A DNA stretch of 27,500 nucleotides from positions 1 to 27,500 of the forward strand of contig JAQGDQ010000140.1 in assembly GCA_030141605.1 (NCBI GenBank), in the 5' to 3' direction. Origin of the DNA: Tubiluchus corallicola (taxonomy: Eukaryota; Priapulida; Priapulimorpha; Priapulimorphida; Tubiluchidae). Positions 1 through 27,285 of the stretch are shown in pieces (the stretch's first letter is position 1; each line of letters opens with the position of its first letter). A model generated the notes under the pieces. That model saw nothing but the letters and a program-made list of their open reading frames with translations. It had not been told where the DNA came from and made no database searches. A program made the translations under genes and the position numbers.

Positions 1-765
1 AAGTCAAAGATCATAAATATCTCCGCACACGACCTTGAAAACCTCCTGGCAATAAATGTGGCCTAAAGACTAAATCAAAACACTAGACCACAAGTGCTTT
101 GCAAAACAAAGATTTTAGCTTTTAGTGCATAATTATAGCCTACATCTCAAGTGCTGAGAACCTACAACAACATTTAGGCCTAGCCTTGGCAAAACTCTCA
201 AGAGCAAAAGCGTGTGACAATTTCCAAAACCCAGAGATAATCTACACTTGTTCTTGGGGTCGTGTTATTTCAATCAAACTTTTGTTATGTGACACAACTA
301 ATGATTTAGAATTTCAGATCGTGGATTAACACTGAAGTCTATAGCTTAATACTGAAGTCTGTGAGAACGGTAGTAGAACGAGGATAATAAAGTGATGCTG
401 AGGTCTGTGTTTCAGATTTGAAAAAGCCGCCAGCTTCAGGCTGTTTTTATTCAAACAGATGGTTGTAAAGAAGTAAGGTCAAGGTGGAAAATGTAGTATG
501 TAAATCACAGATTTACTTTAAGCACCAGAAAAAATGGCTATGTAGTCTATCAATATGCAATTAATTTTTACAGTAGTAGCAAACACAACTGAGATAACAA
601 TCATAAAGTAATCTGATATTGGTAAAATTGGAGAGGATTTCGATTTAATTCGCAAAAGAATGATTGTTTTATTGAATTTTATTGAATGTTAAGTAAACAA
701 AATGTATCAACAAAAATGTGTTGAAAGCCGTTTTCTGAAAACGTATCACGAAAGAAATGACATAC
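1..765 (-). other. Start of the intron after module G
   Basis: Intron sequence downstream of the last visible donor. I find no exon 1 of a further module here, which is unsurprising because the exon 3 to exon 1 introns in this gene are 862-1974 nt. A short direct repeat (ACTGAAGTCT twice) lies near 332-360. The rest is unremarkable AT-rich sequence. Confidence 0.6.
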
Positions 766-831
766 CCAATATGTAGCGTTGACCGCAAATGTTCAGTAGC
801 TAAGAGTAAGTTTTCAAAATTGAATGGCAGT
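766..831 (-). CDS. Module G exon 3 (66 nt), zinc-finger histidines
   Basis: Acceptor TTGCAG and donor GTATGT. Gln is completed, then L-P-F-N-F-E-N-L-L-L-A-T-E-H-L-R-S-T-L-H-I and a split Gly. It is the last exon in the window. Because the codon is left open and a good donor follows, at least one more exon, presumably an eighth module, lies beyond position 1. Confidence 0.88.
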
Positions 832-3800
832 CTGCAACAGTGAAAAAAGTTTAACAAAAAAAACATTCAAATTTTTGCTTAAAACACATGTCATTTTAGT
901 AGAAATTCACATGAACTAAAGCTGTGAGTGTGATGCAACCTGAAATCACAAGGTTCTGGGTTCAAGTCCTGGTTGCCCTAATGTTTTTCAACACTGTCTT
1001 CAAATAATTAGCATTAGGTTAGTTGTTCTTTGTATAATGTCTTCCTTAACATTTGACTGTTTCCTTTTTTTGTTTTTTCAGTATTTATGTCAGATATTTT
1101 ATTTGCCTTTCGCATTATGCAAAAGTGTAAAAAATCTGCAAAAAGAGAGTCAAATTTCAAACAGAAATTCAAATATTTAAATAATTCAACTTTTTCTTTA
1201 CAAAAAATGGTAAATTAGTGAAATAAAGAACGAAGCACAAAAATAATTTACTTATTGGAAAAACCAAGTATAAAAAGTAATATTAAAACTAAGTGAAATC
1301 AGTAAGTGTGCTTGCAAACCAAAACCATCCAGAAGTCGGCATAGTTAAAACTGCATTATGATGCTTCAAAGTAGAATGGAGTAAAGTTGAGTCAATATTT
1401 TCTTTTTTATAAAAACAAATGCTAAATATACTGAATATTCATATTCTAGCACCTAATCACCAGGAAATGTTCAAAAATCACTAAAAATTAAATTTTATAC
1501 CCTCTACCCACTTCTCTGGCTAAAAACTGCAATTGTGAAAAACTTGGTATTTTCAAACTCCAATAGTAGTTCGTGGAAGCAGTCATTTTGCTTGCAGTTT
1601 TTTCTGTTGCCAAGCACAGATCTTCGTCTGGAAGAGCCATCTACTGGAGTTGAATGTGTTCTTGCAAAGTCCATAGCAACCACCCACTCGTATGGTGGCT
1701 AAGTGTTTTGCAGAAACGCGACAAAAAACAATAGCTAGCTAGCAATTTTCTCAAGATTATATTTTCCAGTGTGCATCGTTTTTTAAGATGATGATTTTTG
1801 ACGAATAGCTTCCACCTCAACTTCAATGCGGATTATCTCAACTTAGCATATAACACGGAGCTATGAGGTTGGCATCAAAATGATGAAATGGAATTTCAGG
1901 GAACGAGAACAACTAAAGTTTAACTACCTTCCGGACATTTTTTGCTGTGCAAGCACACATATTAAGAAATGATAGAGAATAAGCGTGTATACGTACTGGC
2001 AGACCGAACACGAATACGTATGAGGGGTTTTATCCATGTTCATTATCAAATGATTGTCTTCAAAGGCAGAATGAACCAGCTAAAAATAAAGTAACGTAAA
2101 ATTTCTCACTTTCATGGTGTGTCATATATACATTTGTATCACTTGAACTTGATTAAATTACTTTGAATAGTTTCATAATGTAAATGAATTTGAATTAATC
2201 GTTGTTAGATTTAGTCGAAAAACTCTTACGATAAATTTGATGAAATTCACTTTAGCACAGATATGTAAAACTTAATGTAATAGTATTGACAGTGTAAACA
2301 AATTTAAATTCTATTGTTACAATCCTATGAATACAATGAATCAAAATAAATTCTGTTCAAGTTCAAATTTCAGTGCCAGAATACCAAAAAATATTACATT
2401 AATTACCTAATTAAACTCAAGTTCAATCCTACAAAAGTCTAATACAGTTTTCCCTCACTTATCGCGGGTTTTCCGTTCCAGGCCCACCCCTGGATTCCCG
2501 CGAAGTAGGGACGCTATACTTAATTTAGTAGTTATGCTTTATTTTGAGTCTTTATAAACCCTCCCCACACTCTTATGTACATAACGCTTTCCCATTCCTT
2601 TAATAACTTTTCCCATTCTGTACATGTGCCTTTTAAAAAACTTTACTTAGATGTTCATAAAAATGTTTTAAACTTTTAAACCTAGATAGGTGTACGTACA
2701 ATCTCATGTCGGCAAGTAGCATCTCAAGCGGGCGCATGTACTACATTTCGTTTTTGGTGTGTATTCATCCGCCGAATAAACACACTATTTACTGTAAATG
2801 GTAATTTTTATGATTTATAATATTCTTTTAATGTTAGAAATAATATTTTTGATATATTTTTATACATTTTGCATTTTTATGTATAACTGTACATTACTGT
2901 ACAATACGTGCTATGCATGTGCAAAAATACTTTAGACGGAGTACTGCAAAAACCCGCGAAACAGCGAGTCTGCGATAAACGGTCCGCGAAGTAGCGAGGG
3001 AACCCTGTAAAATAAGTAAAACATGCCAATGTCTTTAGCATGTTTTCTAAAACTAGCCTATTAAATCTTATGTTTCTCACAAAGCATAGTTAGAAAATCA
3101 TAGCACTTTTTGTGCAATTGAAGTTTAGCATAAGTGCTGATAATCATCATGGCAACACTGAAAGAGCTATTTTTAAACCAACTGCTTGTTTATACTTTTA
3201 CATGCAGTTGTTTTTACGAAGAATATATTTACCTTGTAAAATATCTCAAGTGACAAACGTAACATAAACGGTTGACGTAAGTCTTCACAAATTTTAATGG
3301 AAATGAGTTACGATTGGCGATAATACCAGTATTATACATATATTATATAGTAAATGATACAATTACTCTTAAATTTATAAAAATAGTACATTATAATTAC
3401 CCTTACCTATATAATATTGATATTATAGTAAGCCTTATCTGTATAAAACTATGTTATAATTATGCATAATTGTGCAAAACTAATATATGGTTACTTTAAT
3501 TAATGTTAAATCAATGCTATTACAATCCTTATAAATATAAAACTAATATTATATTTATTTTACCTGTATGTCTTCAGGTATAAGATTTGCATCTTTCGCA
3601 TCTTCTTGTAAAATAGTCATTCTAAACAAACGTGAAAGTAAAAATACTAACATAAGAAATCGTATTTACAATAAACTACGAACTATGAATTTTGTTTCAC
3701 ACATCAAAAAATACAATATCAAACACATTAATAAACTTTAAATAAAATAATTTGAGTAGTGCGAGGTGAGTGTACGGCCATACGGTCATTAACACACTCA

Positions 3801-6800
3801 CCTTACTTAAATGAAAAAATGATTATAGTTATGCATGCTTCTGTAGATAACTTAATGTAAATAAGGATGAAGTAAATGATGTAATAATAGCAATGGTATA
3901 AGTGCAATAAACCTAAAAGTTGAGAAAGGAAAACATAATATGTAATTACGACTTTGAGTGAGCCTTAAAGAGTGAAATTTTTTTTAAATAGTTACGAATT
4001 TGAATTATGTGATTATCTGTCAATGCACCAGTTACTTATATTACAATGCACCATATTACTTACTTGTATATACAATGATACACACATACACACAAATGTA
4101 CCCAAATTTTAATAAACTGTTAATGTTTTGCATATCTATTCGGTAAAGGACATTTGGGGTGTCGTGAATACAGTACTTGTGAGTATATGTTAAATGAATT
4201 TTGAATGTACAGGAGCGATTTTTTTACAAAAAATCTCCAGAAAAGTAAACAGAGAGCGTTTAAGATAGTTTTCATCTGGAAAATTTATTTTCAATGGAAT
4301 GTTTTTGAATTGTTTCTAACAAATCTGTGAGGTAACAAGAATGTTCAACGTGGATTTCCCACATGTTTAACACATTCAAATTTGTAACCAAAGTTTAATC
4401 TATTACCACATATTTTAACCATGAAAAACACAGAATGCTTCATGAAGAACATAAATAAATGGTAAACAAAACAAGCAAATGAAAGGCTGGCAAAACGCAT
4501 AAAAATAATACGACATCCAATTACAGTCCTGTCTGTTAATTACTGTTATAATTGAGAAAAGGAACAATTGTGTTTTAGGTAAAACCTCACTAATTTTTCA
4601 AATGTTCTTCTATTTACCGTTTGCACTCCTACATATTGAATTACAAAGTTCTGCAGCACTTTTCTACATCGTCAGGCAGTTTTTTTCATAGCAGACATTG
4701 ATACTTGATTAATAGCAACTGATTTTTTTACTTTTGAAATACTTTTGAAATCAATTCCCAGTAAAACATGTTTTTTCTGTCCCACGCCACACGTTCAGAA
4801 GTTTTATTAAATCCAATGACATTGTCTTTTAAGGCCCACCACAAGCTGACACACCAACGCCCATTTGTTTCTGCTAAAGCCGTACTTAATAGATGATTTA
4901 AAGGTTTTTTCCGCAAGATTCAAAAATCGATTAACAACTCAAAAATCAATTAACAACTCAAAAATTGATTAACAACTCAAAAATCGATTATTACCAAACC
5001 GAAAAGCCATTCCTTGTACTGCAGTTCATACCTCTCCATGCAGCTTTACTAAAATGAATTACAATCCTAGATACTAGAATAATAGCCAAACATATAAATT
5101 CTTTAATAATTACTGACAAAATTATTTATACGATAATAACAGGGATAGACATACCTGATGTGTATCGGTGAGCGAAAGTGTTCAGCCGTCGAATACAGAT
5201 TGGCAAAATTAAATGTAAGCCTGTGAAAATAGAATTATTGTATAAGATTATATAATATGTTTTTTTATATAATCAGTCTATTCTCTTCTCTATAGATGCC
5301 ACCTGGTTATAGCTATAGTAAAACTTCTACACTGCCGTTTAATAGACTCAGTTTGAGAAAAAAGTGTTTTGACCCAATTAACTAATTGAATCTATTACCT
5401 GATGGATGTGGCATTACTATTATAGAAGTATGGAGGATGAAGTCTTCACTCATCAATTTAGTATGTTTTTTTATATATTTTATTGGGTAACCGCAATTAC
5501 AAATTACACAATACACACACTTATTATAAAGATATAATTACACACATATACAGCGCTACAAAAAACCTATACCACGTTATCAAGAACACAATTACACAAG
5601 TCAAACTCAACAATTTAAACCAAAGACACAACATCAAACCTTGATGTATAAACCCAATGGTACAACATGAATATACATAAACACAAATTTAAGATAGTTG
5701 CATTACACATGTAGTATTTAGTTCACATAAGTGATGTTAGTTACATATTTAGTTCGTATTTTTTCAATTTATAATAAGTACATTCTGGAACTGAAACATT
5801 TTAAAGCAAAATTACACGCACTTTGGAGAATTTCTGAAACATTCGAGCCTAATAGTAATTTTAATTTGTCATCATCTAATAAGTTGGTAAAGTTTGGATA
5901 GTATGCACTGCAAAGGCTGTGAGAGCTTTAAATGTCAGCTATACCTACGGTCTATTTTTCAAAATTTACTCTGTTTTCTTAGTTGTTCTATGATGTTTAC
6001 GTTTGTAAAGCTGCAAAAGATTACTGCTGTTGCATCAGCTGCATGGCAGCAACAGTTAACTGATTTAACATTTTTGTGAAAAGCAGTCAGAGCTTCAAAA
6101 ACAAACCGATAGACGTGCGATTAAAAGTTTAGCTTCCATAAATTCTCGGGTAACAAGGTTAACAATACCATATTAGCCCATACTGTAGTGCACATAAAAC
6201 GGCATCAAGTAAAGATGACATAAAAGCAGCAAAAGCTCTTTGATCTCCCGAAGTATCTTATTTTAAGTACCTCAAGCAAAAACATTGAGTCAATTACGCA
6301 GAGTTCTTTGACTCAGTTGCCAGCAGCTTTTATATTAATTTGAATACCAGCAGCCCATACAAACTAGTACTACGGCCAAATCACGTTGAAAACACCGGTT
6401 CTCGTCTGATCACCAAAGTTAAGCAACGTAGAGCCTGTTAGTGCTTGGATGGGTGACCGCCTAGGAATACCAGGTGCTGTAGGTTTGCGGGATGCCCACA
6501 CTGTATCTCAACACTAGGCAAAGGAGCTGTACAAGCAGCCAACGGCTAGAGGGCGGAGGAGGTCAAGTAACCCAACGGCCATGTGTAGAGGAGTAAACCT
6601 TCCAAATCAGGAGTGGAGCCCCGAAGGTGGACCAGTGCAGTATGCTCACTGACTCCGGCAGCTTCTGCAGACAACCTGGTGCCAAACGTATCGCTCCGCT
6701 TTCCTTTGGACTACACCAGGGAGGAAGAGAGGGGGTTTCTGTTGTCTGGGCAACTCAGGAGCTCCATACACCTTGCCCAGGCGTGCGCCCTGGAGACGTT

Positions 6801-18800: not shown

Positions 18801-21800
18801 CTACTTTTGTTCAGTAAATATGTACACAAAGCTCTTACAAGGGTTGCATTTTGAGATGTTAGCAACATCTTGTATTGAAAATTAACGAGCTTTTCTTTGT
18901 CTCGTACTGTCGTATGCCTCTGCAGTTGACAACGTTCGAACATACTTGCGCATTGAGGCAAAACCTGGACAAACTGCCGATTTTTTGAAAACCCGCCCAA
19001 AAAGAGGACGGGTCCGGGGGAAACCCGGACATATGGTAACCCTAATCTTATAATAAAGTGGTTTTCTAAAGTCTAAACTATGGACAGTCAGTAAAAGTAT
19101 TTTCATTTGCTCAACTCTTTTGTCAGATTATAAATTATTTTCCGCAACAACATGACTAATTTTTAGTCACTTGATCTGCACCTGGTTTAAACTAAAAAAA
19201 ACCCGCCAAACTATGCTATTACTATAAGTAAACAGCTTTAGACTTTTAGCAGACATTTTTACATCAATAGCGGGCTATCTTTGCATGCTACTTGCAGCAC
19301 TGAAACACAGCATGAAGATTGCTATGGAATGACTTGCAAACTGCAAACAGGGTGACATAAAAACTCATCGATATTTGTGCAAATTTCTGAATTCTTTAAT
19401 GTGTTTCACTAACCAAAATGTAACGTGACTTGTTGCATTTTCAGTATTTTTATTTCTATGTAAGGTAACTGACACAGTTTCAATTGTAATTTTTTAAGCA
19501 TATCATTTATGAAAAATTGCTATACCAGACTTCAATTCTTTCTATTATTTAAACAGATATATATGTTTAAATCCGGCTAAATATGGCACTATTTACTTTT
19601 CTAGCCCTTGCCTTTTAGTTCTTTATAAAAAAATTAAGACTATTTGGGCAATTAACCTGTCTTGTGTGTTTTGTCTTACCTGTTCTAAGTTTACTCACAA
19701 TATGTTGTTTAACATATAGAAAAACGGAAAAGTAAAACAATAGTACAACATCCAATGAACATGTTTTGCTAGTTCCGGATCCATTGAAATTACTGGATCT
19801 TGAGATACACAACCAGACCTGGTACATCCCTAATAAATAGTAAAGAAACTACCATGATTGGTATGACATACCACTTGTGAATCGGAGAACGAAAATGCTC
19901 AAGGGTAACGGGTAAATCGGCAAAGTCATAGCGGAGCCTGCAAATACACAAAAAGATATATTTCTTGTCAATACTTCTTGTAAACAAATTACTATTACTG
20001 TCAACTAAATTAAATTAAGTTATTTAATTAAGTTTAAATCAGTGAAACCGTTTCGCAAAACCATATAAATGACTGACATCATGAGCTGTTGAAATCGAAA
20101 CAATTTCGGTGATCAAACTGCCCTCTCGATCGCATTTATTGAACTAGCAAACAAAAAAAGATTTGATGGTAGATCACAAGAGACAAATGAATTTCTATGT
20201 ATGCATAGTCAAATGTGAGCAATCTAATTGAATTTGTGAATAGCAAGAGATTAAAATCTGTGCTGCCAACGAACCTAAGAAACATAGTATGATGAAATAA
20301 CCAAACTGTAAGAAGAATGGCCCAAGACAAGCATGTCTAGCGTGGGGCAGTGGATACAGCATCAAGTGTTGGGACAGCAGGTGGCTAGTGCATCGCTCAA
20401 TTAAAGCTGGGTAGGTTAGCAAGGTGACCAGAGAATCCTGTTCGAGTAGTAAGTGTGTCAAAAAACAAAGAAATGAGTGAGATTCTAACCCAGAACCCTT
20501 GAATCACCAGCCAATACCTCTTGACCACAGTTTCCACCACACCGTAAGTAATATAGCAATAACTAAGAGAACTCACTGGCATAGGGTGCACTTGTACGAA
20601 TGCGGCACCGTCTCAGTGCATATAATCAACTGATTCCTTTGATATGCTTGACCCAAAATCTGTAACAGACATACAAATAAAATATTTCATGAAAGTGATT
20701 TGACAACCTATTAGAGTGAGATCAGTAGTAATAAATCTCTGCACCTTGAATAATTTACTGTACTGTCTCATATTTATACTAAGTTATACGCGATGATACT
20801 AGCTTTTTCAAAAAATACCAGTTTTTAAATACATTACTGGTACTATTTTTATAATCAGCTTGTTTGTTTTCTTTGCCAATACAAATATTAAACCTTACTT
20901 TTATAATTAAGAATACATAAAATTTTATACAACTTAAGAAAAACCTACTAACAAATTTCAATGGTGTGAATTCAAAGAAAAACAACATTTTATAAAAACT
21001 GACATCCTGCAAAACGTGACATCTGGCAAAATGTCACAACTTGCAAAAAGAAACGTCTTGCAAAATGCACCATCTTTTAAAATGTGACATCTTACAAAAA
21101 CTTACATCTTGTACAATGTGCCATCTTGTAAAATGTGACATTTTACAAAAAGTTACATTTTTGTTGAGTTACAGATCATATAGACAAAACTGTGCGTAAA
21201 TAGATTACGCACTGTGCCCAAACGGATTACGCACTGTGCCCAAATAGATCACGCACTGTGCCCAAACAGATGACGCACTCTGTGCCCAAACAGATGACGC
21301 ACTCTGTGCGCAAACAGATTACGCACTGTGCCCAAATAGATCACGCACTGTGCCCAAATAGATCACGCACTGTGCCCAAATAGATCACGCACTGTGCCCA
21401 AACAGATGACGCACTCTGTGCCCAAACAGATTACGCACTGTGCCCAAACAGATTACGCACTGTGCCCAAACAGATGATGCACTCTGTGCCCAAACAGATT
21501 ACGCACTGTGCCCAAACAGATCACGCACTGTGCCCAAACAGATGACGCACTCTGTGCCCAAACAGATGACGCACTCTGTGCCCAAACAGATTACGCACTG
21601 TGCCCAAACAGATGACGCACTCTGTGCCCAAACAGATTACGCACTGTGCCCAAACAGATCACGCACTGTGCCCAAACAGATGACGCACTCTGTGCCCAAA
21701 CAGATTACGCACTGTGCCCAAATAGATCATGCACTGTGCCCAAACAGATGACGCACTCTGTGCGCAAACAGATTATGCACTGTGCGCAAACAGATTACGC

Positions 21801-24800
21801 ACTCTGTGCCCAAACAGATGATGCACTCTGTGCCCAAACAGATTACGCACTGTGCGCAAACAGATTACGCACTCTGTGCGCAAACAGATTACGCACTGTG
21901 CCCAAACAGATGACGCACTCTGTGCGCAAACAGATTACGCACTGTGCCCAAACAGATGACGCACTGTGCCCAAATAGATTACGCACTGTGCCCAAACAGA
22001 TGACACACTCTGTGCCCAAACAGATTACGCACTCTGCACAAACGTATTGTGTTCAAATAGATTTTTTGCAATAGTTTCATTACTAGGTAAGGATTATTCT
22101 GTTTTGAGTCATAAAATGAATTATGGATTATGTTTGCTTCAAATTATTTACGGAATCAAATATTTTTTCTTTAAATGGATACCAGAATTTCTTCCTGTCC
22201 AAGATTTTGTGCTAAAGCATCCTGGTGTAAAACTTCTAACCTAGAAAAACATGAAAAAATTAAACACAGGCCAAGGCAACATAAGGCACATTCACATCAC
22301 GTCAGAACATGTTCAAATTGGAACAAAGGCAAAAACTGCGAAATTTGCTGCACAAGTACTCAGAAAAATCTTTAGTCAACAATCAAAAAACTTATTTAGA
22401 TTTTTAGGACTTTTAGGCTTATTAGATATGAGAAAAATATGACATAAAAACTTTTCTCCACATTATATAAATTACTGTAGCTTTTTAATGTCCAACACAA
22501 CGTCTAATCAGGGTAGCGAATTTAAATCTTTAAAAATTGCTAATTCTAAATGTTTTCTAGTTTTTTTTCCAGTAACATGTAGTCCTAAAGATAAGATAAA
22601 TTGTGAAATATTGATAATTATGCATCAATGAGTTTTTAACACCATAATTTTGTTGTATTATTTACTTTCACACTGGACAGCGACAAACACGAAAATTATT
22701 CTTATTCCTATAAGTGATGGGTTCCCAACCTTGGGGTCGCGTGCTAGTACAAAAACTATTTTTAAAAAAATACATGAAAAGTATGTAAGTAGGTCTTGTT
22801 TCCTTAGTCTCTCATTACATCATTTTGTTGTGGAAAGTGAAACTGGGTTTTCCCGCTCTAAATGCGGTATAACAGGCTTGATTTTCCGGAAAAATGCGTG
22901 TACAGTGTACACTACGCGAAAGCGCGTCATTATTCATTTTACGTCGGATCTTCTTGGATACCTATCGCAATGCAAAACTACTCGCTGAGAAACAGGCGCA
23001 AACATCACATTAATGAATTAATGAAACAATGACTCCTTGTTCAATAATTTGTTGAATAGTAAGTTAAAATTAATAAATGCAAACGATGGTGTTTAATAGT
23101 ACAACATGTGATTATGTTCTTTATGGGGTCGCGATATGATGCTGGGTTCTGGAAAGGGGTCGCTGTCAACAAAAAAGGTTGGAAACCACTGCCATAAATG
23201 AACCTAAAGCAAGAGCTATAATCTATGAGCTTACCCTATATGTAACGGCGAATGAAAATGTTCCAATGCTGAATGTAAATTCACAAACGCAAATGGTGTC
23301 CTACAAAAAACGAAAAACGTCAAATTAAATTTGAAAAAATTCAAAAATATTGGTTTAAAGTTCAGCATATAAAAAATAATACTGAAAACCAATAAATTAA
23401 TAAATACAAAATTTAATTAGATTAGATATTTATAATCTTGGAATACAAAATACAGAGTCAGTGCAACTTGACAAACACTTACTACATCACATAAAGTAAA
23501 TTAGTGATTAGGAAATAAGGTTTAACACTGTTAAATACAATAACCAAAACAGGTACTAATGAGGTCACTGCAGTGATCACAAGAGTGGGTGTCGTCTAAT
23601 TTGTTCCCCGCATTTGACTTACAATCCAAAGATCCCTGGTTCAAATCCAACTGGTTATGTGCCAACTTTTTTACATTTTTGTCTTTTGCTACAGTTTAGT
23701 TTAGTGTTAGTCGATTAACAGCATTCATGAGTGCAAGATAATTGCTTAATTAGTAATTAATTAATTGATAATTAGTAATCAGTTAATTAATCAAACATAC
23801 TGGCACAGAGAACATCTGTATGTGTGAGGCATTTTGTCCGTCTCTATGATCAGCTGATTCTTTTCGAATCCACATATCAGCACCTGCAGTTAAATTGTAT
23901 AAGTGCATTATATGGAAGAAATAAAAATGATATAGTTTATTATAAGCTTATCAGCAGACGCTGTTCGACGACTGTGTTCGACCCTGAAGTGATGATGATG
24001 TCTTTGGCTCAGACATGTTTTAGATACTTATCTGAGGGTCCACAGTTATACAGTATTAAGTTTCGTTTTCACTTCCTTGGCAGTTTTGGAAAAGATAAAT
24101 TATCAAGCCAAAAAGTAGAAATTTTAGAATTTTTCAGTAGTTGCTAGGCAACCATTGTCACTATGGCAATCAAATTTTTACAGCACAAATAGACGTGCAA
24201 CTGTGTAAGTTTGGTTAGAACTGGATGAGCAGTCTTTGAGAAACAGACAGACAGACGGAAAGACGGATAGATGCAAGTGAGAAAAGGGGTCCAAATAAGT
24301 TGAGGGGTCAAACCAGTAATATTTATCAATCTACTTAAAACATATTAGTACAATTAAATTTCTTAAAATGAGTCGTTGCAACTCATTTGCAAACAATAAA
24401 TATAATGTTAAGACAGCAAAATGTCATTTATTTTTATCCCCACCCCCACATTATGATGGTTCGATCCATTACGAAGCCAGTGCACATCGGCATTGCTATA
24501 AGTAGTGGGTATCGAATGGCTGCTTCGGTTCAATTGACTGAAGCACAGGTGCGATTAATATCTCACGCACAGGTGCAATTAACATCTCAGCACCTGTTCT
24601 GCAGAACTTGGAGGAAGCACATGGGATTATGGCGAGTTTACTTTACAAAAACTCTCCTTGTTCTTTCGTTTTTCTAACGTTTTACTGTAACATTAAGTGA
24701 ACGCTAATGAATCAACATCATCCGGTCACATCATAATAATATACAAACATGTTCTAATTTGGATAATGATAACTGCAATAAATAATAACACATAGATGTT

Positions 24801-27285
24801 CATAAACTGATTACCTTTTTAGCGTCCAGTGGAACTTTTTCAACCTCCATCACTTGATGTAAAATCGCCAACCTAAAAAAATGGTAAATAATATAGGTAA
24901 GTAAATTATATTACCACATTCATGAAAGCATACAATCTACTCATGAAACATTTTTTTTAAAAACCAGATGTCAATGCATACTTTAACTGCCGTGAGTTCA
25001 GTGTGTTGCCCAGAAGATGGTGCTAAAATGCAATATGCAGTTTTAATTGCTTTCCATAAAGTTAATTTTAATTGTCATAATAAACATTTTGTTTATTATT
25101 CCAAGATTTCTGCATTTGTCCACGACTACAACCTCTTGACTCAATGGACTCCAAAGCAGTTATAGTGAGTACCTACAGCTGAAATTTAGAGAAATTGGCA
25201 TCCTAGCGCCATCTTCTGGGCAGCACACTAAACTCACTGCAGTTACAGTACGCATGGAGAGTTATTCACAATACACATTTACTGAAAACAATAATATAAC
25301 ACTTTGGTTTTTCATTGCATTGAAGTAACTGTAGTATTTATTTCCACTTCAAACAAAATATTTCTACAAAATTTACCCAAAAAAAGAAACACTCATTTTC
25401 TACACAGTACACACTAATAAATAATATTTCGTTTGCCTGCCAGAAGTGAGTCATTTAAAATTGTGAATACACATTTGAGGCAACTTACTGATGATCATTT
25501 TCCAACTGACCAACCGATCAACGACTTGACCAACATAAATACCAACAGTTGCTTCAAGTTTGAGCAGATTAGAACTTGGGTTAATAGAAAACGAGTGTAT
25601 AACGATCATCCTTAGTCGAAATTTCAAAATTTTTGTCTTAAAACGGCTTTAAAAGTTTCATAGGAAATGCCTCCAGAAATGAAACTTCACAATAAATATC
25701 AGCTTTTAAGCCGGTCTATCACAGCTAATCTTACCCCACATGCAGACTGGAATGAAAGTGCTCAACTGCTAGGATTAGATCAGGAAAACTCAACCTGGAA
25801 AAAGCAATTCCTGCTTAAAAACTACTCATTGTAACAATGATATAAATGCACGAAAGCAAAGCTAAATTAAAAGTTTGAAAAACTTTGTATATCTAATGCG
25901 ACTCAAACCTAAGACCTTCTGCTTTCCGGATGAATGTGCTAACCACCTTCTGGCACAGAATCAGACTGGTACAAAATACATAAATATTAAAAAATAACAC
26001 AACTGCAGCACTGCTCATATAGCATTATCATATAATTACTGCTGCTTGATGAACAATAGCTAAGCAAATAACTGTAAAAATTTTAATAGATTATCCATTA
26101 TCAAAAATACTAACAAAACAGAGATTCTAGGCGGAATCAAGGATATTATGTGTTACTCTAATGAAATGCATCGTTATGTAATGTTGAAAAAAGGTAACGA
26201 ATGAATGAGTGAATGAATGACCAAATGAATGAATGAACAAACAAACGAATGGACGGATGAATGAATGAATATATTTTGACGTCAACATAATGGTCATTAA
26301 AGTTTCTGTAATAGTATTAATACTCATAGAGAAGGCACTGTTCTCTATTTTTCAATGATTTTGCACTTTGAAGAGTGTTGCACATTGCTAATGTTAATGC
26401 CTAGGAACCAACCAGCAATAGGCTGCGAAGTACGTTTATTAGCAATTAAAAACAGAATTCTTTTTATCATAAGGTCAATGATAATGTCTATAATCTTTAT
26501 TTTATTAGTGATTGTTATGTTTTACATTAAACTTTCATTTACTAGCAATGAAAACAGTTAAAAGCAGGCAAGGTTTTAAATAATAGTAGCAGCAATAATA
26601 TAATATAGTTTAAATTATTTATTACAATACATATAATAATAATATAATATTAGTAAGTTTAGAGTGCATACTGGCATACGGAACATCTGTATGTTTGTGT
26701 CTTTTTCTCCCTGTCTAGAATCATCAAATGACCGTCTTGCAAAGCCGATGATAACAGCTACAACAGCAAAGCAATCAGAATAATGTATCTCTCATCCATG
26801 TTGTAAAGTCATCATATACATTCATTATTTGCTGTAACCGTACGTTTACTGATTTTTTTCTACTACTTGCCACACTAAATGAAAACTTTGCTGAAAGAAA
26901 ATTCTAAAGGAAAAAGACAAAGTCAACGGTAAAATAACACCACTGGCAACACTAGATCATTGGTTGCCTGCATTAGTTATCCTTGTTTATCCATAACCAA
27001 CGGTAGCAACATTTTATAATTACAAACAAACTTTACTCTAAATATTGTTAAATAAGGAATAAATAATCTAAAGTTTGATTTGAAAAAATAATTTAAATTT
27101 GACGGTGTACATGTGTTAGAGAAGAGGTCTGAAATTTTAAAGCACTTCAACTGAATTATAATCTACAATTTAAGGACATAAATTCAAAATTCAGTTTAGT
27201 ATAGTATAGATTCCGAGTCACATTTACCTGTGTGTCTTTTGATGGTAGTTTTTTTGAGTGTGCCTCACGCTGTACAAAATCTATC
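766..27285 (-). CDS. Partial multi-exon gene encoding seven tandem C2H2 (U1/matrin-like) zinc-finger modules
   Basis: Twenty-one short exons, each with an AG acceptor and GT donor, join into one 1443-nt frame (481 codons) with no stop. They repeat in the order 1-2-3 seven times. Joined exons give a 69-residue repeat: an N-terminal stretch ending near L-x-P-E-D-I-Q, a middle N-x-L-I-x(4)-D-K-x-P-H-T-Y, then C-x2-C-x14-H-x5-H ending S-P-x-H-I-G. Ligand order and the five-residue gap between histidines resemble matrin, U1-C and JAZ-type zinc fingers, which bind RNA or DNA; that role is inferred here. Every exon 1 runs from phase 2 to phase 0, every exon 2 from 0 to 2 and every exon 3 from 2 to 2, so modules arose by duplicating a three-exon block. 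The first and last exons are outside the window. It could instead be a protein-binding finger array. Named family not recognised. Confidence 0.87.
832..1996 (-). other. Intron G2-G3 (1165 nt)
   Basis: Intron by position. It holds a tRNA-like fragment (described separately) near 930-985. Nothing else recognisable is seen. Confidence 0.75.
930..985 (+). repeat. tRNA-like fragment (SINE-like B box)
   Basis: GGTTCAAGTCC-like text (GGGTTCAAGTCCTGG) matches the RNA polymerase III B box and T-arm of a tRNA. The 5' half and acceptor stem are not recognisable, so it is best read as a decayed tRNA-derived SINE or tRNA pseudogene. Confidence 0.4.
1997..2079 (-). CDS. Module G exon 2 (83 nt), zinc-finger cysteines
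   Basis: Acceptor TTTTTAG and donor GTACGT. It starts L-V-H-S-A-F-E-D-N-H-L-I-M and ends D-K-T-P-H-T-Y-S-C-S-V-C plus a split Gln. N-H-L, P-H-T-Y and C-S-V-C match the array consensus closely. Confidence 0.88.
2080..3563 (-). other. Intron G1-G2 (1484 nt)
   Basis: Apart from the Tigger-like element, the intron is AT-rich sequence without recognisable features (2080-2444 and 3010-3563). Confidence 0.75.
2445..3007. mobile_element. Non-autonomous pogo/Tigger-like DNA transposon (563 bp)
   Basis: Imperfect terminal inverted repeats start CAGTTTTCCCTCACTTATCG on the left and, read from the right end inward, CAGGGTTCCCTCGCTACTTC. They are flanked by TA on both sides (2443-2444 and 3008-3009). 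CAG-plus-TTCCCTC ends with further C-G-C-G-G blocks are typical of Tigger/pogo members of Tc1/mariner. There is no transposase frame, so it is a deletion derivative or MITE. It lies in intron G1-G2. Confidence 0.78.
3564..3621 (-). CDS. Module G exon 1 (58 nt)
   Basis: Acceptor GTTTAG and donor GTAAAA. One base closes Arg, then MTILQEDAKDANLIPEDIQ. The Met at residue 1 is internal to the array and is not evidence of a translation start. A 350-bp duplicated segment lies 52 nt upstream of the acceptor. Confidence 0.85.
3673..4030. repeat. Dispersed duplicated segment, copy 1
   Basis: This stretch recurs at 10957-11452 with long near-identical blocks, from AACTATGAATTTTGTTTCAC at the left through a palindrome and GTTATGCATGCTTCTGTAGA to a GTCAAT end. 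A near-perfect palindrome (AGGTGAGTGT ... ACACACTCACCT) sits at 3764-3803. No coding potential is seen. It could be an unclassified transposable element or intron sequence copied between modules. Confidence 0.85.
4919..4990. repeat. Tandem repeat, 19-bp unit, about 4 copies
   Basis: Units read TCAAAAATCGATTAACAAC with single-base changes at the CGATT core (CGATT, CAATT, TGATT, CGATT). Confidence 0.85.
5155..5220 (-). CDS. Module F exon 3 (66 nt), zinc-finger histidines
   Basis: Acceptor TTCACAG and donor GTATGT. The split codon gives Arg, then L-T-F-N-F-A-N-L-Y-S-T-A-E-H-F-R-S-P-I-H-I. The closing split codon AG plus A from module G gives Arg in place of the usual Gly. The E-H-F-R-S-P-I-H core is identical to that in module C. 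Confidence 0.88.
6369..6869 (+). mobile_element. 5S rRNA-derived SINE (SINE3-like) with perfect target-site duplication
   Basis: A head nearly identical to metazoan 5S rRNA is followed by about 380 bp of unrelated body ending in a short CAACAACAACAA tail. The whole is flanked by a perfect 12-bp direct repeat, ATACAAACTAGT, at 6357-6368 and 6870-6881. Head, body, simple tail and duplication are diagnostic of LINE-mobilised SINEs. It is clearly GC-richer than its surroundings. Open frames inside it are by-products. The perfect duplication implies recent insertion. Confidence 0.93.
6370..6488 (+). pseudogene. 5S rRNA-like head of the SINE
   Basis: It aligns along the whole length of animal 5S rRNA: CTACGGCC start, CACGTTGAA, ACACCGGTTCTCGTC, GATCACC-AAGTTAAGCAACG, then TTGGATGGGTGACCGCC and GGTGCTGTAGG. 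The internal control region (A box AAGTTAAGCAACG and C box TGGATGGGTGACC) is preserved and could serve as a pol III promoter. It differs from a true 5S gene at several stem positions and is not followed by a T-run terminator. Confidence 0.88.
7736..7818 (-). CDS. Module F exon 2 (83 nt), zinc-finger cysteines
   Basis: Acceptor TTTGCAG and donor GTAAGT. It starts L-L-Q-R-A-Y-K-D-N-N-L-I-I and ends D-N-V-P-H-T-Y-Q-C-A-L-C. It finishes TGTCG rather than TGCCA, so the split codon becomes Arg where all other modules have Gln. Confidence 0.88.
7862..7985 (-). repeat. tRNA-derived SINE-like unit, copy 1
   Basis: Minus strand carries a B-box-like GGTCTTGGGTTCAAG, preceded by a TTCTGAGTCTGAAAAGTC leader. 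The same leader precedes the tRNA-like unit at 8094-8160, so the two form a family and are not chance tRNA look-alikes. Confidence 0.5.
8094..8216 (-). repeat. tRNA-derived SINE-like unit, copy 2
   Basis: Minus-strand 8160-8094 folds as a tRNA-like molecule. The 7-bp acceptor ACCTCTC/GAGAGGT is perfect, a D-arm GGTGTAACGGTTAGCG and a T-loop TTCGAGTCCC are present. At 67 nt it is short and the T-stem does not pair, so a functional tRNA is unlikely. The leader TTCTGAGTCCGAAAAGTC matches copy 1. Confidence 0.55.
9161..9218 (-). CDS. Module F exon 1 (58 nt)
   Basis: Acceptor GTTTAG and donor GTAAAC. One base closes Gly, then LQVLHQNMLGEDLVPEDIQ. The end L-V-P-E-D-I-Q gives, with module G, the consensus exon 1 terminus. 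Confidence 0.85.
9876..9965 (+). mobile_element. Probable non-LTR retrotransposon 3' end
   Basis: A short stem-loop (ATAGTCTC at 9887-9894 pairing with GAGACTA at 9914-9920) is followed by AAATAAAGGTTATTATTATT and a long trinucleotide run. A 3' hairpin plus microsatellite tail is the usual end of several LINE clades. The element's 5' limit is not visible and may reach back to about 9560. No protein homology supports it. Confidence 0.4.
9948..10020. repeat. TTA/ATG trinucleotide microsatellite
   Basis: Runs of TTATTATTATTATGATGATGATGATG pass into ATTACTATTACTATT and GTCATC-rich text. Confidence 0.85.
10858..10923 (-). CDS. Module E exon 3 (66 nt), zinc-finger histidines
   Basis: Acceptor TTTATAG and donor GTATGT. 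Gln is completed, then L-P-F-D-F-E-S-L-L-A-T-G-E-H-L-I-S-A-L-H-V and a split Gly. It is closest to module G exon 3, sharing L-P-F-[DN]-F-E and L-L-A-T, which suggests these two modules are relatively recent duplicates. Confidence 0.88.
10957..11452. repeat. Dispersed duplicated segment, copy 2, with internal 140-bp tandem duplication
   Basis: It matches 3673-4030 from AACTATGAACTATGAATTTTG onward. Within this copy the block 11031-11170 is repeated at 11171-11310 (both begin ATAATTTGAGTAGTG), so the palindrome occurs twice here. The distal part then continues collinear with copy 1 to the GTCAAT end. Confidence 0.85.
11643..12279. mobile_element. Fold-back (long inverted repeat) element, 637 bp
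   Basis: Left arm from ATAAGTCACACCAGATCTCA and right arm, inverted, from ATAAATCACGCCAGATCTCA stay similar almost to the centre. Shared blocks include GAATAATTGTAAAATTA, GAAGAAATGCAGCATTGCAA and AAGATATCACACTAAAAAG. The right arm has an extra stretch of roughly 70-80 bp near 11985-12055. TTAA flanks both ends (11639-11642 and 12280-12283), as in piggyBac-type insertions, but the termini lack the CCC usual for that family. No transposase is present. Confidence 0.85.
12588..12662 (+). repeat. tRNA-like fragment
   Basis: GAGCTAGGTAGTCTC resembles a D-arm/A box and TAGTTCGAAACCAGAC a T-arm/B box, about 50 nt apart. Stems are degenerate, so it reads as a SINE or tRNA relic. Confidence 0.35.
12954..13036 (-). 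CDS. Module E exon 2 (83 nt), zinc-finger cysteines
   Basis: Acceptor GTTGCAG and donor GTATGT. It begins D-L-S-C-A-L-E-R-N-Q-F-V-V and ends E-K-V-P-Y-T-Y-R-C-T-T-C plus a split Gln. The 47-bp minisatellite begins only about 11 bp upstream of the acceptor, so the normal polypyrimidine region is largely supplied by repeat DNA. Confidence 0.87.
13037..13875 (-). other. Intron E1-E2 (839 nt)
   Basis: Mostly the 47-bp array. The remaining 13752-13875 includes GAATTGAACCTAGTAGATCA, the reverse complement of a tRNA-like T-arm, near 13793-13812. Confidence 0.75.
13048..13751. repeat. Minisatellite, 47-bp unit, about 15 copies, with 141-bp higher-order repeat
   Basis: Units read CATTATCATTAACAATCCAT then AATTAAG-[CT]-ATAAATC-CTAGAAATG. 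Variants at AGTATAA/AGCATAA, TCCTAG/TCTTAG and AAATGTTT/ATATGCTT recur in the same order every three units between about 13200 and 13620. The array therefore grew partly by 141-bp blocks. It lies in intron E1-E2, against the acceptor of exon E2. Confidence 0.93.
13876..13930 (-). CDS. Module E exon 1 (55 nt)
   Basis: Acceptor TTAATAG and donor GTAAGC. It is one codon shorter than its counterparts: one base, then NVLQKTAMAENLTPEQLR. N-L-T-P-E-Q-L aligns with N-L-I-P-E-D-I of module G. The acceptor has no long pyrimidine tract. The deletion keeps the reading frame. Confidence 0.83.
13931..14901 (-). other. Intron D3-E1 (971 nt)
   Basis: It contains a GC-richer patch at about 14124-14600 that includes a 62-bp tandem duplication and a CAGGGTGTTCAGGAAAAA start reminiscent of transposon ends. 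No matching second terminus was found. Confidence 0.65.
14371..14494. repeat. Tandem duplication, 62-bp unit, 2 copies
   Basis: The block starting TCTCAGCGGTACTTGGTGGG at 14371 repeats at 14433 with a one-G deletion and a TGATGA to TCGCGA change, ending GATCTAGTCTGAG each time. Confidence 0.9.
14902..14967 (-). CDS. Module D exon 3 (66 nt), zinc-finger histidines
   Basis: Acceptor TTTCTAG and donor GTACGT. Gln is completed, then F-N-F-G-C-N-N-L-S-T-T-V-Q-H-L-Q-S-P-V-H-I and a split Gly. E-H-F is changed to Q-H-L, and the N-L and S-P-x-H-I-G positions are kept. It carries an extra cysteine within the x14 stretch. Confidence 0.87.
14968..16127 (-). other. Intron D2-D3 (1160 nt)
   Basis: Nearly filled by the 33-bp array. 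Only about 120 nt at the acceptor side and 18 nt at the donor side are outside it. Confidence 0.8.
15089..16109. repeat. Minisatellite, 33-bp unit, about 31 copies
   Basis: Units read ACAGAAGAATTCACAGATAA then TTATAAATAAAAT, with rare CAGAG for CACAG, TAGTT for TAATT, and short deletions in the A-run. Copies are highly uniform, indicating recent expansion or homogenisation. An EcoRI-type GAATTC recurs in each unit. Because 33 is a multiple of three, a spurious minus-strand frame runs through it. Confidence 0.95.
16128..16210 (-). CDS. Module D exon 2 (83 nt), zinc-finger cysteines
   Basis: Acceptor TTTTCAG and donor GTATGT. It starts L-L-G-C-A-A-E-Q-N-H-L-M-V and ends D-K-I-P-P-K-Y-T-C-T-I-C plus a split Gln. 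P-P-K-Y replaces P-H-T-Y. The 33-bp minisatellite starts about 18 nt beyond its donor. The conceptual frame reading on through the donor into the repeat is an artefact. Confidence 0.87.
16211..17839 (-). other. Intron D1-D2 (1629 nt)
   Basis: It contains the 43-bp array. 16320-17160 is AT-rich; it ends in AATAAAAAGACTTATAATGA then ATAATAATT, which could be an old retroposed end on the plus strand, but no homology supports a gene there. Confidence 0.65.
17378..17610. repeat. Minisatellite, 43-bp unit, about 5.4 copies
   Basis: Units read CAAATAACAAAGCTACTAAA then TTAGCCAATCAGCAATCATTGCT, with GCCAATC/GCGAATC variants. The first copy carries GCTGCT and TTAACG. Each unit holds a CCAAT-like or CGAAT box by chance. 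Confidence 0.93.
17840..17897 (-). CDS. Module D exon 1 (58 nt)
   Basis: Acceptor CTTAG-like (GTTTAG) and donor GTAAAT. After the split codon it reads SGVFQPMAQDEHLSPGDVQ. L-S-P-G-D-V-Q matches the L-x-P-E-D-I-Q end of modules F and G. The H-Q of modules B, C and F is F-Q-P here. Confidence 0.83.
17898..19871 (-). other. Intron C3-D1 (1974 nt)
   Basis: It holds the 480-bp TAGGG-ended element. 17898-18556 and 19053-19871 show no recognisable gene or repeat. Confidence 0.75.
18565..19044. mobile_element. Non-autonomous hAT-like DNA transposon (480 bp)
   Basis: Terminal inverted repeats TAGGGTTACCATAT are perfect over 14 bp and continue imperfectly. Flanks ATCTTATT (18557-18564) and ATCTTATA (19045-19052) agree at 7 of 8 positions, the duplication length typical of hAT. 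AAAAAGAGGAC occurs near both ends in direct orientation. Minus-strand frames inside (18722-19106) lack transposase-like motifs. Confidence 0.8.
19872..19937 (-). CDS. Module C exon 3 (66 nt), zinc-finger histidines
   Basis: Acceptor TTTGCAG and donor GTATGT. Gln is completed, then L-R-Y-D-F-A-D-L-P-V-T-L-E-H-F-R-S-P-I-H-K and a codon split as TG. With the G that opens module D exon 1 this becomes Trp, so the usual H-I-G is H-K-W here. Both histidine ligands and the five-residue gap are intact. Confidence 0.88.
19938..20576 (-). other. Intron C2-C3 (639 nt)
   Basis: A tRNA-like fragment lies close to the C2 donor. 19938-20460 shows nothing recognisable. Confidence 0.75.
20468..20550 (-). repeat. 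tRNA-like fragment
   Basis: On the minus strand TGTGGTCAAGAGGTATTGGC resembles a D-arm/A box and GGGTTCTGGGTTAGAATCTC a T-arm/B box, at tRNA-like spacing. Stem pairing is poor, so it is probably a SINE relic. Confidence 0.4.
20577..20659 (-). CDS. Module C exon 2 (83 nt), zinc-finger cysteines
   Basis: Acceptor GTTACAG and donor GTGAGT, the best donor match in the gene. It begins I-L-G-Q-A-Y-Q-R-N-Q-L-I-I and ends T-V-P-H-S-Y-K-C-T-L-C plus a split Gln. The internal Cys after L-I-I is unique to this module. Confidence 0.88.
20996..21168. repeat. Degenerate tandem repeat, roughly 19-20-bp unit
   Basis: About eight or nine diverged copies of ACATCTTGCAAAATGTG-like text follow one another (AAACTGACATCCTGC, AAAACGTGACATCTGGC, AAAATGTGACATCTTAC and so on). 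It is older than the neighbouring array. Confidence 0.7.
21191..22063. repeat. Minisatellite of mixed 22- and 24-bp units, about 38 copies
   Basis: Three main unit types occur: GATTACGCACTGTGCCCAAA-CA, GATCACGCACTGTGCCCAAA-TA (both 22 bp) and GATGACGCACTCTGTGCCCA-AACA (24 bp). GATG is almost always linked to the CT insertion. GTGCGC variants cluster toward the right end. Long plus-strand frames across it are artefacts of the near three-fold periodicity. Confidence 0.95.
22183..22240 (-). CDS. Module C exon 1 (58 nt)
   Basis: Acceptor TTTTCTAG and donor GTATCC. One base closes Gly, then LEVLHQDALAQNLGQEEIL, with L-x-V-L-H-Q as in modules B and F. The usual Pro of L-x-P-E-D is Gln and the exon ends CTG rather than CAG. 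It sits between the hAT-like element and the 22/24-bp array and would be easy to miss. Position, length and phase fit the module exactly. Confidence 0.83.
22241..23234 (-). other. Intron B3-C1 (994 nt)
   Basis: The acceptor-distal half is the hAT-like element. 22241-22715 has no recognisable feature. Confidence 0.78.
22716..23191. mobile_element. Non-autonomous hAT-like DNA transposon (476 bp)
   Basis: Ends read GATGGGTTCCCAACCTTGGG on the left and, inverted, CAGTGGTTTCCAACCTTTTT on the right, the CAGTGGTTCCCAACC-type terminus of many animal hAT elements, with GGGGTCGC near both ends. Flanking octamers CTATAAGT (22708-22715) and CCATAAAT (23192-23199) agree at 6 of 8, fitting an aged 8-bp target duplication. 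No transposase frame. Confidence 0.83.
23235..23300 (-). CDS. Module B exon 3 (66 nt), zinc-finger histidines
   Basis: Acceptor TTTGTAG and donor GTAAGC. Gln is completed, followed by T-P-F-A-F-V-N-L-H-S-A-L-E-H-F-H-S-P-L-H-I and a split Gly. This is the copy closest to the array consensus: F-x-F-x-N-L, E-H-F and S-P-x-H-I-G are all intact. The distance from the second cysteine to the first histidine is 14 residues. Confidence 0.9.
23301..23800 (-). other. Intron B2-B3 (500 nt)
   Basis: Contains a plus-strand tRNA-like fragment (23590-23665) and TTAATTAAT runs next to the B2 donor. Otherwise unremarkable. Confidence 0.75.
23590..23665 (+). repeat. tRNA-like fragment
   Basis: GTGGGTGTCGTCTAATTTG resembles a D-arm and GATCCCTGGTTCAAATCCAA a T-arm/B box, followed by a T-rich stretch. 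Acceptor pairing is not evident. Confidence 0.42.
23801..23883 (-). CDS. Module B exon 2 (83 nt), zinc-finger cysteines
   Basis: Acceptor ACTGCAG and donor GTATGT. It begins V-L-I-C-G-F-E-K-N-Q-L-I-I and ends D-K-M-P-H-T-Y-R-C-S-L-C plus a split Gln. An extra cysteine at residue 4 also occurs in modules D and E, and lies outside the finger ligands. P-H-T-Y immediately before the first zinc cysteine is also present in F and G. Confidence 0.88.
23884..24814 (-). other. Intron B1-B2 (931 nt)
   Basis: Includes a GACA-rich dispersed-repeat tail near 24206-24270 and a 25-bp direct repeat at about 24541-24590 (GCACAGGTGCGATTAATATC then GCACAGGTGCAATTAACATC). Remaining sequence unassigned. Confidence 0.7.
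24206..24270 (+). repeat. Probable dispersed-repeat tail with GACA microsatellite
   Basis: AAGTTTGGTTAGAACTGGAT, then CAGTCTTTGAGAAACAGACA and GACAGACGG. This pattern of a TTTGGTT...-CAGT-TTTGAGA core running into ACAGACAGACAG is common to repeats scattered in invertebrate genomes. The element's other end is not seen. Confidence 0.42.
24815..24872 (-). CDS. Module B exon 1 (58 nt)
   Basis: Acceptor TTTTTTTAG and donor GTAATC. One base closes the split Gly of module A, then LAILHQVMEVEKVPLDAKK. It shares L-x-[VI]-L-H-Q at its start with modules C and F. The end K-V-P-L-D-A-K-K replaces the commoner L-x-P-E-D-I-Q, and the exon ends AAG instead of CAG before the donor. Confidence 0.82.
24873..25734 (-). 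other. Intron A3-B1 (862 nt)
   Basis: Contains the 292-bp TIR-bearing element. 25266-25734 shows nothing recognisable. Confidence 0.75.
24974..25265. mobile_element. MITE with about 50-bp terminal inverted repeats
   Basis: Left end ATGCATACTTTAACTGCCGT and right end, inverted, ATGCGTACTGTAACTGCAGT continue together through GTGAGTTYAGTGTGYTGCCC and AGAAGATGGYGCTA. The arms surround about 190 bp of unique sequence. A target duplication is not obvious, so superfamily is unassigned. A plus-strand frame across the left arm is incidental. Confidence 0.75.
25735..25794 (-). CDS. Module A exon 3 (60 nt), zinc-finger histidines
   Basis: Acceptor TTCCAG and donor GTAAGA. The first G completes Gln (CA+G); then L-S-F-P-D-L-I-L-A-V-E-H-F-H-S-S-L-H-V and a split Gly. 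It is two codons shorter than all other exon 3 copies, so module A reads C-x2-C-x12-H-x5-H, whereas the others have x14. The x12 form is the textbook spacing of matrin/JAZ-like fingers, which supports the zinc-finger reading of the whole array. Confidence 0.87.
25903..25970 (-). repeat. tRNA-like fragment related to the unit at 7862
   Basis: Minus strand reads GGTGGTTAGCACATTCATCC (D-arm-like), GGAAAGCAGAAGGTCTTAGG and GTTTGAGTCG (T-arm-like). The GAAAGCAGAAGGTCTTRGGT block is shared with 7862-7930, indicating one SINE or tRNA-derived family. Confidence 0.48.
26199..26270. repeat. GAAT/GAAC tetranucleotide microsatellite
   Basis: Interrupted GAATGAATGA runs with CAAA, GGAC and GTGA interruptions. 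Confidence 0.88.
26672..26757 (-). CDS. Module A exon 2 (86 nt), zinc-finger cysteines
   Basis: Acceptor TTGTAG and donor GTATGC. It opens in phase 0 with L-L-S-S-A-L-Q-D-G-H-L and ends T-Q-T-Y-R-C-S-V-C followed by CA, the first two bases of a split Gln codon. The two cysteines are the first pair of zinc ligands. At 86 nt it is one codon longer than the six other exon 2 copies (83 nt), with the extra residue lying between N/G-H-L and the T-Y-x-C motif. The frame continues into module A exon 3. Confidence 0.87.
26758..27227 (-). other. Intron A1-A2 (470 nt, shortest in the window)
   Basis: AT-rich intron. No repeat or gene recognised. Confidence 0.75.
27228..27285 (-). CDS. Module A exon 1 (58 nt)
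   Basis: Acceptor TTTTTAG and donor GTAAATG bound 58 nt. The first base completes a codon begun in an exon outside the window, and 19 full codons follow: IDFVQREAHSKKLPSKDTQ. It aligns with the other exon 1 copies through the hydrophobic pair at positions 3-4, the Q at 5, L-P-S near the end and the final Q. The Asp-Ile of the usual P-E-D-I-Q is D-T here, so this copy is divergent. It is the most 5' exon of the gene seen in this window. The fixed length, phase and splice sites make the call, since 19 residues alone would be weak evidence. Confidence 0.78.

What the first reader, a model, noticed from the sequence alone, without database searches (positions are those of the whole stretch)
766..27285. 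Seven-fold tandem three-exon zinc-finger module on the minus strand
Twenty-one micro-exons keep an identical 1-2-3 order, length (58/83/66 nt, with only in-frame changes: 86 and 60 nt in A, 55 nt in E) and phase pattern across 26.5 kb, giving 481 stop-free codons. No single exon is long enough for ordinary gene prediction, so this gene could easily be missed or fragmented. The repeat matches no named protein I recognise.
Basis: partly seen in the sequence, partly recalled or inferred. Interest (0 to 1): 0.88.

Follow-up and report, generated by a model that had tools for sequence, protein, structure and literature searches.

The report
Giant tandem zinc-finger gene in animal
The window holds part of what looks like a very large animal gene that encodes a long chain of similar zinc-finger units, each cut into small exons in the same way; the gene structure is well supported by the sequence, but what the protein does is still unproven.

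Summary
In detail: 21 small exons on the minus strand (766-27285), seven copies of a 58/83/66-nt three-exon module, all AG...GT, phase-consistent, 481 codons without a stop. Exons 2 and 3 are far beyond chance; exon 1 of modules A, B and D rests on position, length and phase. Each module is a linker plus one U1-type C2H2 finger (C-X2-C-X14-H-X5-H; X12 in A).

The window is only a piece. Contig C225 ends with exon 3 of an eighth module and a complete ninth. Upstream on the same strand, 13 further finger pairs and an arginine-serine-rich exon reach about 97 kb, most with the same split: CxxC exon phase 0/2, H exon phase 2/2. A second locus, C2212, has the same exon architecture.

So this looks like one giant U1-type finger gene with a paralogue. 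A nuclear RNA-associated scaffold is my best guess; most fingers tested are near neutral, which argues against simple dsRNA binding. Three protein searches of unknown animal coverage found no homologue. The taxon is unproven. No RNA data were available.

The parts
27228..27285 (-). exon A1, 58 nt, linker exon, phase 2/0
   Evidence: exon-1 profile weak for this copy
26672..26757 (-). exon A2, 86 nt, helix-like segment + CxxC half of finger, phase 0/2
25735..25794 (-). exon A3, 60 nt, HX5H half (X12 spacing), phase 2/2
24815..24872 (-). exon B1, 58 nt, linker exon
   Evidence: profile weak
23801..23883 (-). exon B2, 83 nt, CxxC half
23235..23300 (-). exon B3, 66 nt, HX5H half
22183..22240 (-). 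exon C1, 58 nt, linker exon
20577..20659 (-). exon C2, 83 nt, CxxC half
19872..19937 (-). exon C3, 66 nt, HX5H half
17840..17897 (-). exon D1, 58 nt, linker exon
   Evidence: profile weak
16128..16210 (-). exon D2, 83 nt, CxxC half
14902..14967 (-). exon D3, 66 nt, HX5H half
13876..13930 (-). exon E1, 55 nt, linker exon
12954..13036 (-). exon E2, 83 nt, CxxC half
10858..10923 (-). exon E3, 66 nt, HX5H half
9161..9218 (-). exon F1, 58 nt, linker exon
7736..7818 (-). exon F2, 83 nt, CxxC half
5155..5220 (-). exon F3, 66 nt, HX5H half
3564..3621 (-). exon G1, 58 nt, linker exon
1997..2079 (-). exon G2, 83 nt, CxxC half
766..831 (-). exon G3, 66 nt, HX5H half; the next modules found lie on contig C225

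Best explanation
The window is an internal stretch of one giant protein-coding gene that runs, 5' to 3', from about C1797:97 kb or beyond down through the window and on to contig C225. It encodes a chain of U1-type C2H2 zinc-finger modules made by repeated tandem duplication of an ancestral exon set. In nearly every module the finger is cut by a phase-2 intron just after C-x2-C, giving a CxxC exon (phase 0/2) and an H exon (phase 2/2); in the window a 58-nt linker exon (2/0) completes a 69-residue unit. Shown by sequence: the exons, frames, codon-position bias between modules, the extension in both directions, and a second locus. Inferred: that all pieces are spliced into one mRNA. Inferred, less surely: the protein is a nuclear scaffold that holds RNA or ribonucleoprotein partners, with contact by the RS-rich segments and the few basic upstream fingers, while the near-neutral modules, those of the window included, serve as spacers or protein-docking units. 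Because each window module starts and ends in phase 2, skipping whole modules would keep frame, so finger number could vary by splicing. I put about 0.9 on the giant finger array and about 0.3 on the RNA-scaffold role.
For: Exons, frame, phases; leave-one-out profiles; codon-position bias and dN below dS. Seven invariant residues (Y, C, C, L, H, S, H) in 7 of 7 modules. The own-genome protein search gave 26 matches: the 21 window exons, three on C225, one each on C33 and C737. C225 is 131,535 bp; its three hits lie within 4 kb of its end, and it holds exon 3 of module H and a 58/83/66 module I. Upstream CxxC exons: 22 hits (window included), all minus, three of them judged spurious. H exons: a looser scan gave 24 minus hits (17 kept, 7 dropped) and 12 plus hits. 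Strict scan, C1797 32501-70000: 12 CxxC (one spurious), 6 H, 11 ordered pairs on minus, 0/0/0 on plus; 75001-117500: 2/2/1 against 0/0/0; C454, 130 kb: 0 CxxC, 1 H, 0 pairs; 20 Markov-1 resamplings: mean 0.00 pairs in each of four regions (a pair is any CxxC exon with an H exon within 5 kb downstream, so CxxC exons may share one). Module profile A1 against upstream class A2: hhalign probability 82.8, E 9.3e-6. RS-rich open frame C1797:64955-65440 contains a CxxC half finger with a phase-2 donor. U1C-type definition C-X2-C-Xn-H-X5-H and dsRNA binding by JAZ: passages of PMC6488673. Introns do not resemble one another between modules apart from one dispersed repeat.
Against: No transcript evidence; no start or stop exon identified. 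C1797:27501-32500 and 70001-75000 read N, and a contig break lies between G3 and H3, so a single mRNA is not shown and neighbouring genes are possible. A1 against the short upstream class A3 gives hhalign probability only 12, E 0.0024. Three upstream pairs have HX4H, not HX5H, and HX5H was part of the search pattern for the others. The window fingers are near neutral, the 480 aa have net charge -19, and only 3 of 11 upstream fingers counted are clearly basic, which argues against dsRNA binding of the JAZ kind. No single finger was shown to reach a Pfam cut-off. Three CxxC half fingers (C1797 85.1, 67.6, 62.8 kb) have no convincing partner.
Confidence: 0.75

Rival explanations
1. The finger chain is a protein-docking or structural scaffold, a spring or ruler of zinc-stabilised units with 44-residue linkers, with no nucleic-acid role, at least in the window part. 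(Not exclusive of the one-gene anatomy.)
For: Finger net charge is -3 to +1 in A-G and I, the 480 aa are acidic overall (-19), and 8 of the 11 upstream fingers counted are -3 to +1.
Confidence: 0.35
2. The modules are alternative cassettes: module-level alternative or mutually exclusive splicing selects which fingers appear, so no mRNA holds all of them.
For: Every window module is symmetric (phase 2 in, phase 2 out), so any set of modules can be joined in frame.
Against: Symmetry is also what simple tandem duplication leaves; mutually exclusive arrays usually repeat single exons, not ordered triplets (recalled, no call). No RNA data.
Confidence: 0.12
3. Two or more adjacent genes: the nine 58/83/66 modules form one gene and the upstream X/Y/Z fingers, RS exon and N-terminal fingers another.
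For: The module class changes between 33.7 and 27.3 kb, where 5 kb read N; A1 against A3 similarity is weak.
Confidence: 0.2
4. A decayed pseudogene array or chance pattern.
For: None beyond the lack of RNA data; module A has small in-frame changes.
Against: No stop in 480 codons, GT and AG in 21 of 21 exons, codon-position bias, dN below dS where dS could be computed, zero pairs in controls.
Confidence: 0.02

Closest known systems
U1C/JAZ (ZNF346)-type C2H2 zinc fingers, including the TUT4 finger
   Same: C-X2-C-Xn-H-X5-H ligand spacing as defined in PMC6488673 (passages). Several fingers and long linkers in one protein (recalled for JAZ).
   Different: 21 finger pairs in the locus instead of a few; X14 between Cys and His in modules B-G and I (X12 in A and the upstream short fingers); window fingers lack positive charge; no tested finger reaches the Pfam jaz cut-off.
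Pfam zf-C2H2_2 (PF12756)
   Same: The 480 aa reach 33.9 bits against a cut-off of 26.9, three stretches.
   Different: The upstream single fingers that match it score 15.9-18.6 bits, and it is not among the families listed for the seven single modules; the best stretch covers positions 41-78 of 100.
ZNF451 finger domains (PF23107, PF23102)
   Same: Weak similarity: PF23107 E 1.4e-5 for the 480 aa and E 2.9e-4 at best among 2 of 7 single modules; PF23102 E 0.0037 for finger N2.
   Different: Below cut-off (26 against 30 and 17.6 against 30 bits); no tandem 69-residue module is described for it that I recall.
Classical TFIIIA/KRAB-type C2H2 arrays
   Same: Tandem C2H2 fingers in one protein.
   Different: HX5H and 44-residue linkers, each finger split by an intron; classical arrays have short TGEKP-like linkers, usually in one exon (recalled).

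Membership tests
U1C-type C2H2 zinc finger | C-X2-C-Xn-H-X5-H ligands | tested here: met
   7 of 7 window modules; 18 of 21 pairs in all, the other three (V2, V3, RS) are HX4H. For the ten other upstream pairs HX5H was part of the search pattern
JAZ dsRNA-binding fingers | Pfam zf-C2H2_jaz above its cut-off | tested here: not met
JAZ dsRNA-binding fingers | positively charged helix residues that contact dsRNA | tested here: inconclusive
Pfam zf-C2H2_2 | score above cut-off | tested here: met
   33.9 against 26.9 bits for the whole 480 aa; single fingers were not shown to reach it
ZNF451 | ZNF451 finger domains above cut-off | tested here: not met
   26 against 30 bits; 17.6 against 30
RS-domain splicing factor | arginine-serine repeat region in the same protein | tested here: inconclusive
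   RS-rich open frame C1797:64955-65440 with a CxxC half finger and phase-2 donor, but joining to the rest is not shown by RNA and its acceptor was not settled
zinc-binding protein | binds zinc | not testable with these tools
   needs protein
spliced gene | reads across the predicted junctions | not testable with these tools

The most novel reading that the evidence does not exclude
A lineage-specific family of giant zinc-finger scaffold genes, titin-like in logic: more than twenty intron-split U1-type fingers in a hierarchical tandem array, with RS-rich segments between them, in which phase-symmetric three-exon modules let splicing set the number of fingers, and in which the 3' modules have turned from RNA contact to protein docking.
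Probability: 0.2. Interest if true: 0.72.

Novelty: new variant of a known kind. Interest (0 to 1): 0.55.

Why it matters
Exons of 55-86 nt spread over 470-2515-nt introns are easily missed, so the gene may be absent or broken up in annotations of this and related animals. If it is one gene, it is an unusually long array of U1-type fingers, and a clear case of a domain split at one fixed intron position being multiplied about twenty times. It offers a test of whether finger number is tuned by in-frame module skipping and of what U1-type fingers do when they lack basic residues.

Tried and rejected
Protein homologues: three searches of the 5.8-billion set found none: 4720 candidates, none at E 10 or less (480-aa query, so targets of 264-840 aa); 5483 candidates, none at E 10 or less (doubled 960-aa query scored on 1-480, targets of 528-1680 aa); 2164 candidates, none at E 1 or less (1757-aa query scored on 930-1757). 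The share of animal proteins in that set is unknown, so this does not show absence elsewhere. PDB: none by single sequence; profiles A1 and A3 find generic C2H2 fingers (A1 best ZBTB20 E 0.0048, ZNF622 E 0.17; A3 best PRDM9 E 5.5e-6, Bud20 E 0.017-0.026, ZNF593 E 0.13-0.15). NCBIfam: one irrelevant flagellar hit far below cut-off. Profile searches for related loci in viral contigs and genome contigs did not run: the alignment was not conserved enough.

Taxon: Glyco_hydro_6 as a tunicate marker found nothing, but its controls rang nowhere either, so it decides nothing. A COX1 search did not complete.

C454: window 2-627 is 99.2% identical to C454:172573-173198, but the profile and phased-exon scans of C454:90001-220000 show no module; rejected as the continuation. 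C225 is the better continuation, though the join itself is not in the assembly.

Dropped rows; 26543, 57872 (stop inside) and 57891 (low complexity; also counted among the 12 CxxC exons); 7 of 24 minus hits (9634, 9893, 33794, 41862, 65356, 75949, 75982). One search lists further CxxC candidates; I used those with a phase-0 acceptor and phase-2 donor; a 57-nt candidate partner for the 62.8-kb half and a 144-nt one for the 67.6-kb half were not counted.

Papers: search listings only (titles, starts of abstracts, capped) for (1 of 1; 5 of 76,527; 19 of 19; 12 of 22; 10 of 556; 8 of 91); they are no proof that nothing is in print. Passages only of PMC2889900 and PMC6488673. PMC3985865 is not held.

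Structure prediction was not run: a spliced protein is not given letter for letter by the DNA, which the tool requires.

Full report
1. Check of the observation. The 21 exons are present at the stated coordinates and strand. Their boundaries, lengths, splice sites and the 481-codon open frame were recomputed. The seven exon-2 and seven exon-3 copies are each recovered by another copy at E 4.8e-5 or better and by leave-one-out profiles, with no non-member scoring above any of the 14. For exon 1 the profile supports C, E, F and G; for A, B and D the peptide alone is not above background, and those three rest on splice sites, the 58-nt length and phase. Between the five modules of 207 nt, 38, 31 and 61% of codon positions 1, 2 and 3 differ. 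In 15 pairwise comparisons among B-G, dN is 0.38-0.61; dS is 1.4-3.3 in 8 pairs and saturated in 7. The introns (470-2515 nt) share no sequence between modules apart from one dispersed repeat. So the array looks like an old tandem duplication kept under selection for protein.

2. What a module is. The alignment of seven modules (69 columns) has seven invariant residues: Y41, C43, C46, L55, H61, S64 and H67. Cys2 to His1 is 14 residues in B-G and 12 in A, His to His 5. This is the U1C type as defined in PMC6488673 (passage). The first two ligands lie on exon 2, the last two on exon 3, so an intron in phase 2 cuts every finger. The linker between fingers is about 44 residues: it includes the 19 residues of exon 1 and the start of exon 2.

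3. Beyond the window. The window is the start of contig C1797 (516,596 bp) in a 343.5-Mb assembly. A genome search with the 480 aa gave 26 matches: the 21 window exons, three on C225, and one each on C33 (E 0.24) and C737 (E 3.6). C225 is 131,535 bp long, and its hits lie at 131.2, 128.4 and 127.6 kb on the minus strand, near its end. They are exon 3 of an eighth module (H) and exons 2 and 3 of a ninth (I), whose 58-nt linker exon was then found at 129.58 kb; I2 is 83 nt and I3 66 nt. No more modules were seen down to C225:102001. The parts missing from module H fall in the gap between contigs.

5. A second locus. A 323-aa query of upstream fingers gave 18 matches: 13 on C1797, three weak ones on C2212 (E 0.12-1.4), one each on C663 and C1686. 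Two C2212 stretches were fetched. At 130-131 kb there is an X-type CxxC exon of 110 nt and a Y-type H exon of 99 nt with the same phases; at 59.6-59.9 kb the end of an X-type exon, cut by the edge of the stretch, and a Y-type exon. The reverse search from the first C2212 pair gave 8 matches: three on C2212, four C1797 X or Y sites at E 0.0016-0.048, and one on C788 at E 0.06. Differences by codon position between the C2212 X exon and the three C1797 X exons are lowest at position 2 and highest at position 3. So there is probably a small family.

6. Names. The 480 aa pass the Pfam cut-off for zf-C2H2_2 and show sub-threshold similarity to ZNF451 fingers. All 13 upstream fingers were scanned; several show sub-threshold similarity to zf-C2H2_jaz, zf-met or zf-C2H2_2, and none reaches a cut-off. 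For the seven single modules one search prints scores for the first only; the best E of the others (2.9e-4, ZNF451) is weaker than the match that fell short. Module profile against upstream class A2: probability 82.8, E 9.3e-6; against A3: probability 12, E 0.0024. No full-length homologue was found in three searches, and the six capped literature listings did not show the module.

8. Verdict. Real, not an artefact, larger than reported, and built from a known finger type in an unusual way. New variant of a known kind; interest 0.55.

Noticed in passing
window 6368-6868 (+), intron F2-F3: 5S-rRNA-derived SINE: full-length Rfam 5S match (92.2 bits), (CAA)n tail, 12-bp target-site duplication ATACAAACTAGT. 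In 277 kb examined there are 5 copies counting this one; the main pieces of the other four are 91-94% identical, one of them only 333 nt long.
   Followed up: partly
window 13048-13749, 15090-16109, 21189-22043, 17378-17610: Minisatellites of 47, 33, 22/46/68 and 43 bp; the 47-bp array begins 11 bases from exon E2 and the 33-bp array ends 18 bases from exon D2.
   Followed up: no
window 3673-4028 and 10957-11445: A dispersed repeat in introns F3-G1 and E2-E3 at non-corresponding positions, 88-96% identical in the two longest pieces.
   Followed up: no
window 2-627 and C454:172573-173198: 99.2% identity that stops abruptly at 627, inside C454; assembly overlap error or recent duplication.
   Followed up: partly
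C1797:114178-114876 (-): Open frame with zinc knuckles (zf-CCHC E 2.6e-12, four stretches), apparently another gene upstream.
   Followed up: no
C1797:49555-51811 (-): A 752-codon open stretch that starts with the H half of finger V2 and contains VDTKVPG-like repeats and an arginine-serine-rich stretch.
   Followed up: partly
C1797:27501-32500 and 70001-75000: Exactly 5000 bases each read N, the first directly after the window; left alone.
   Followed up: no
C788:97963-98070: Weak match (E 0.06) to the X-Y finger of C2212, perhaps a third locus of the family.
   Followed up: no
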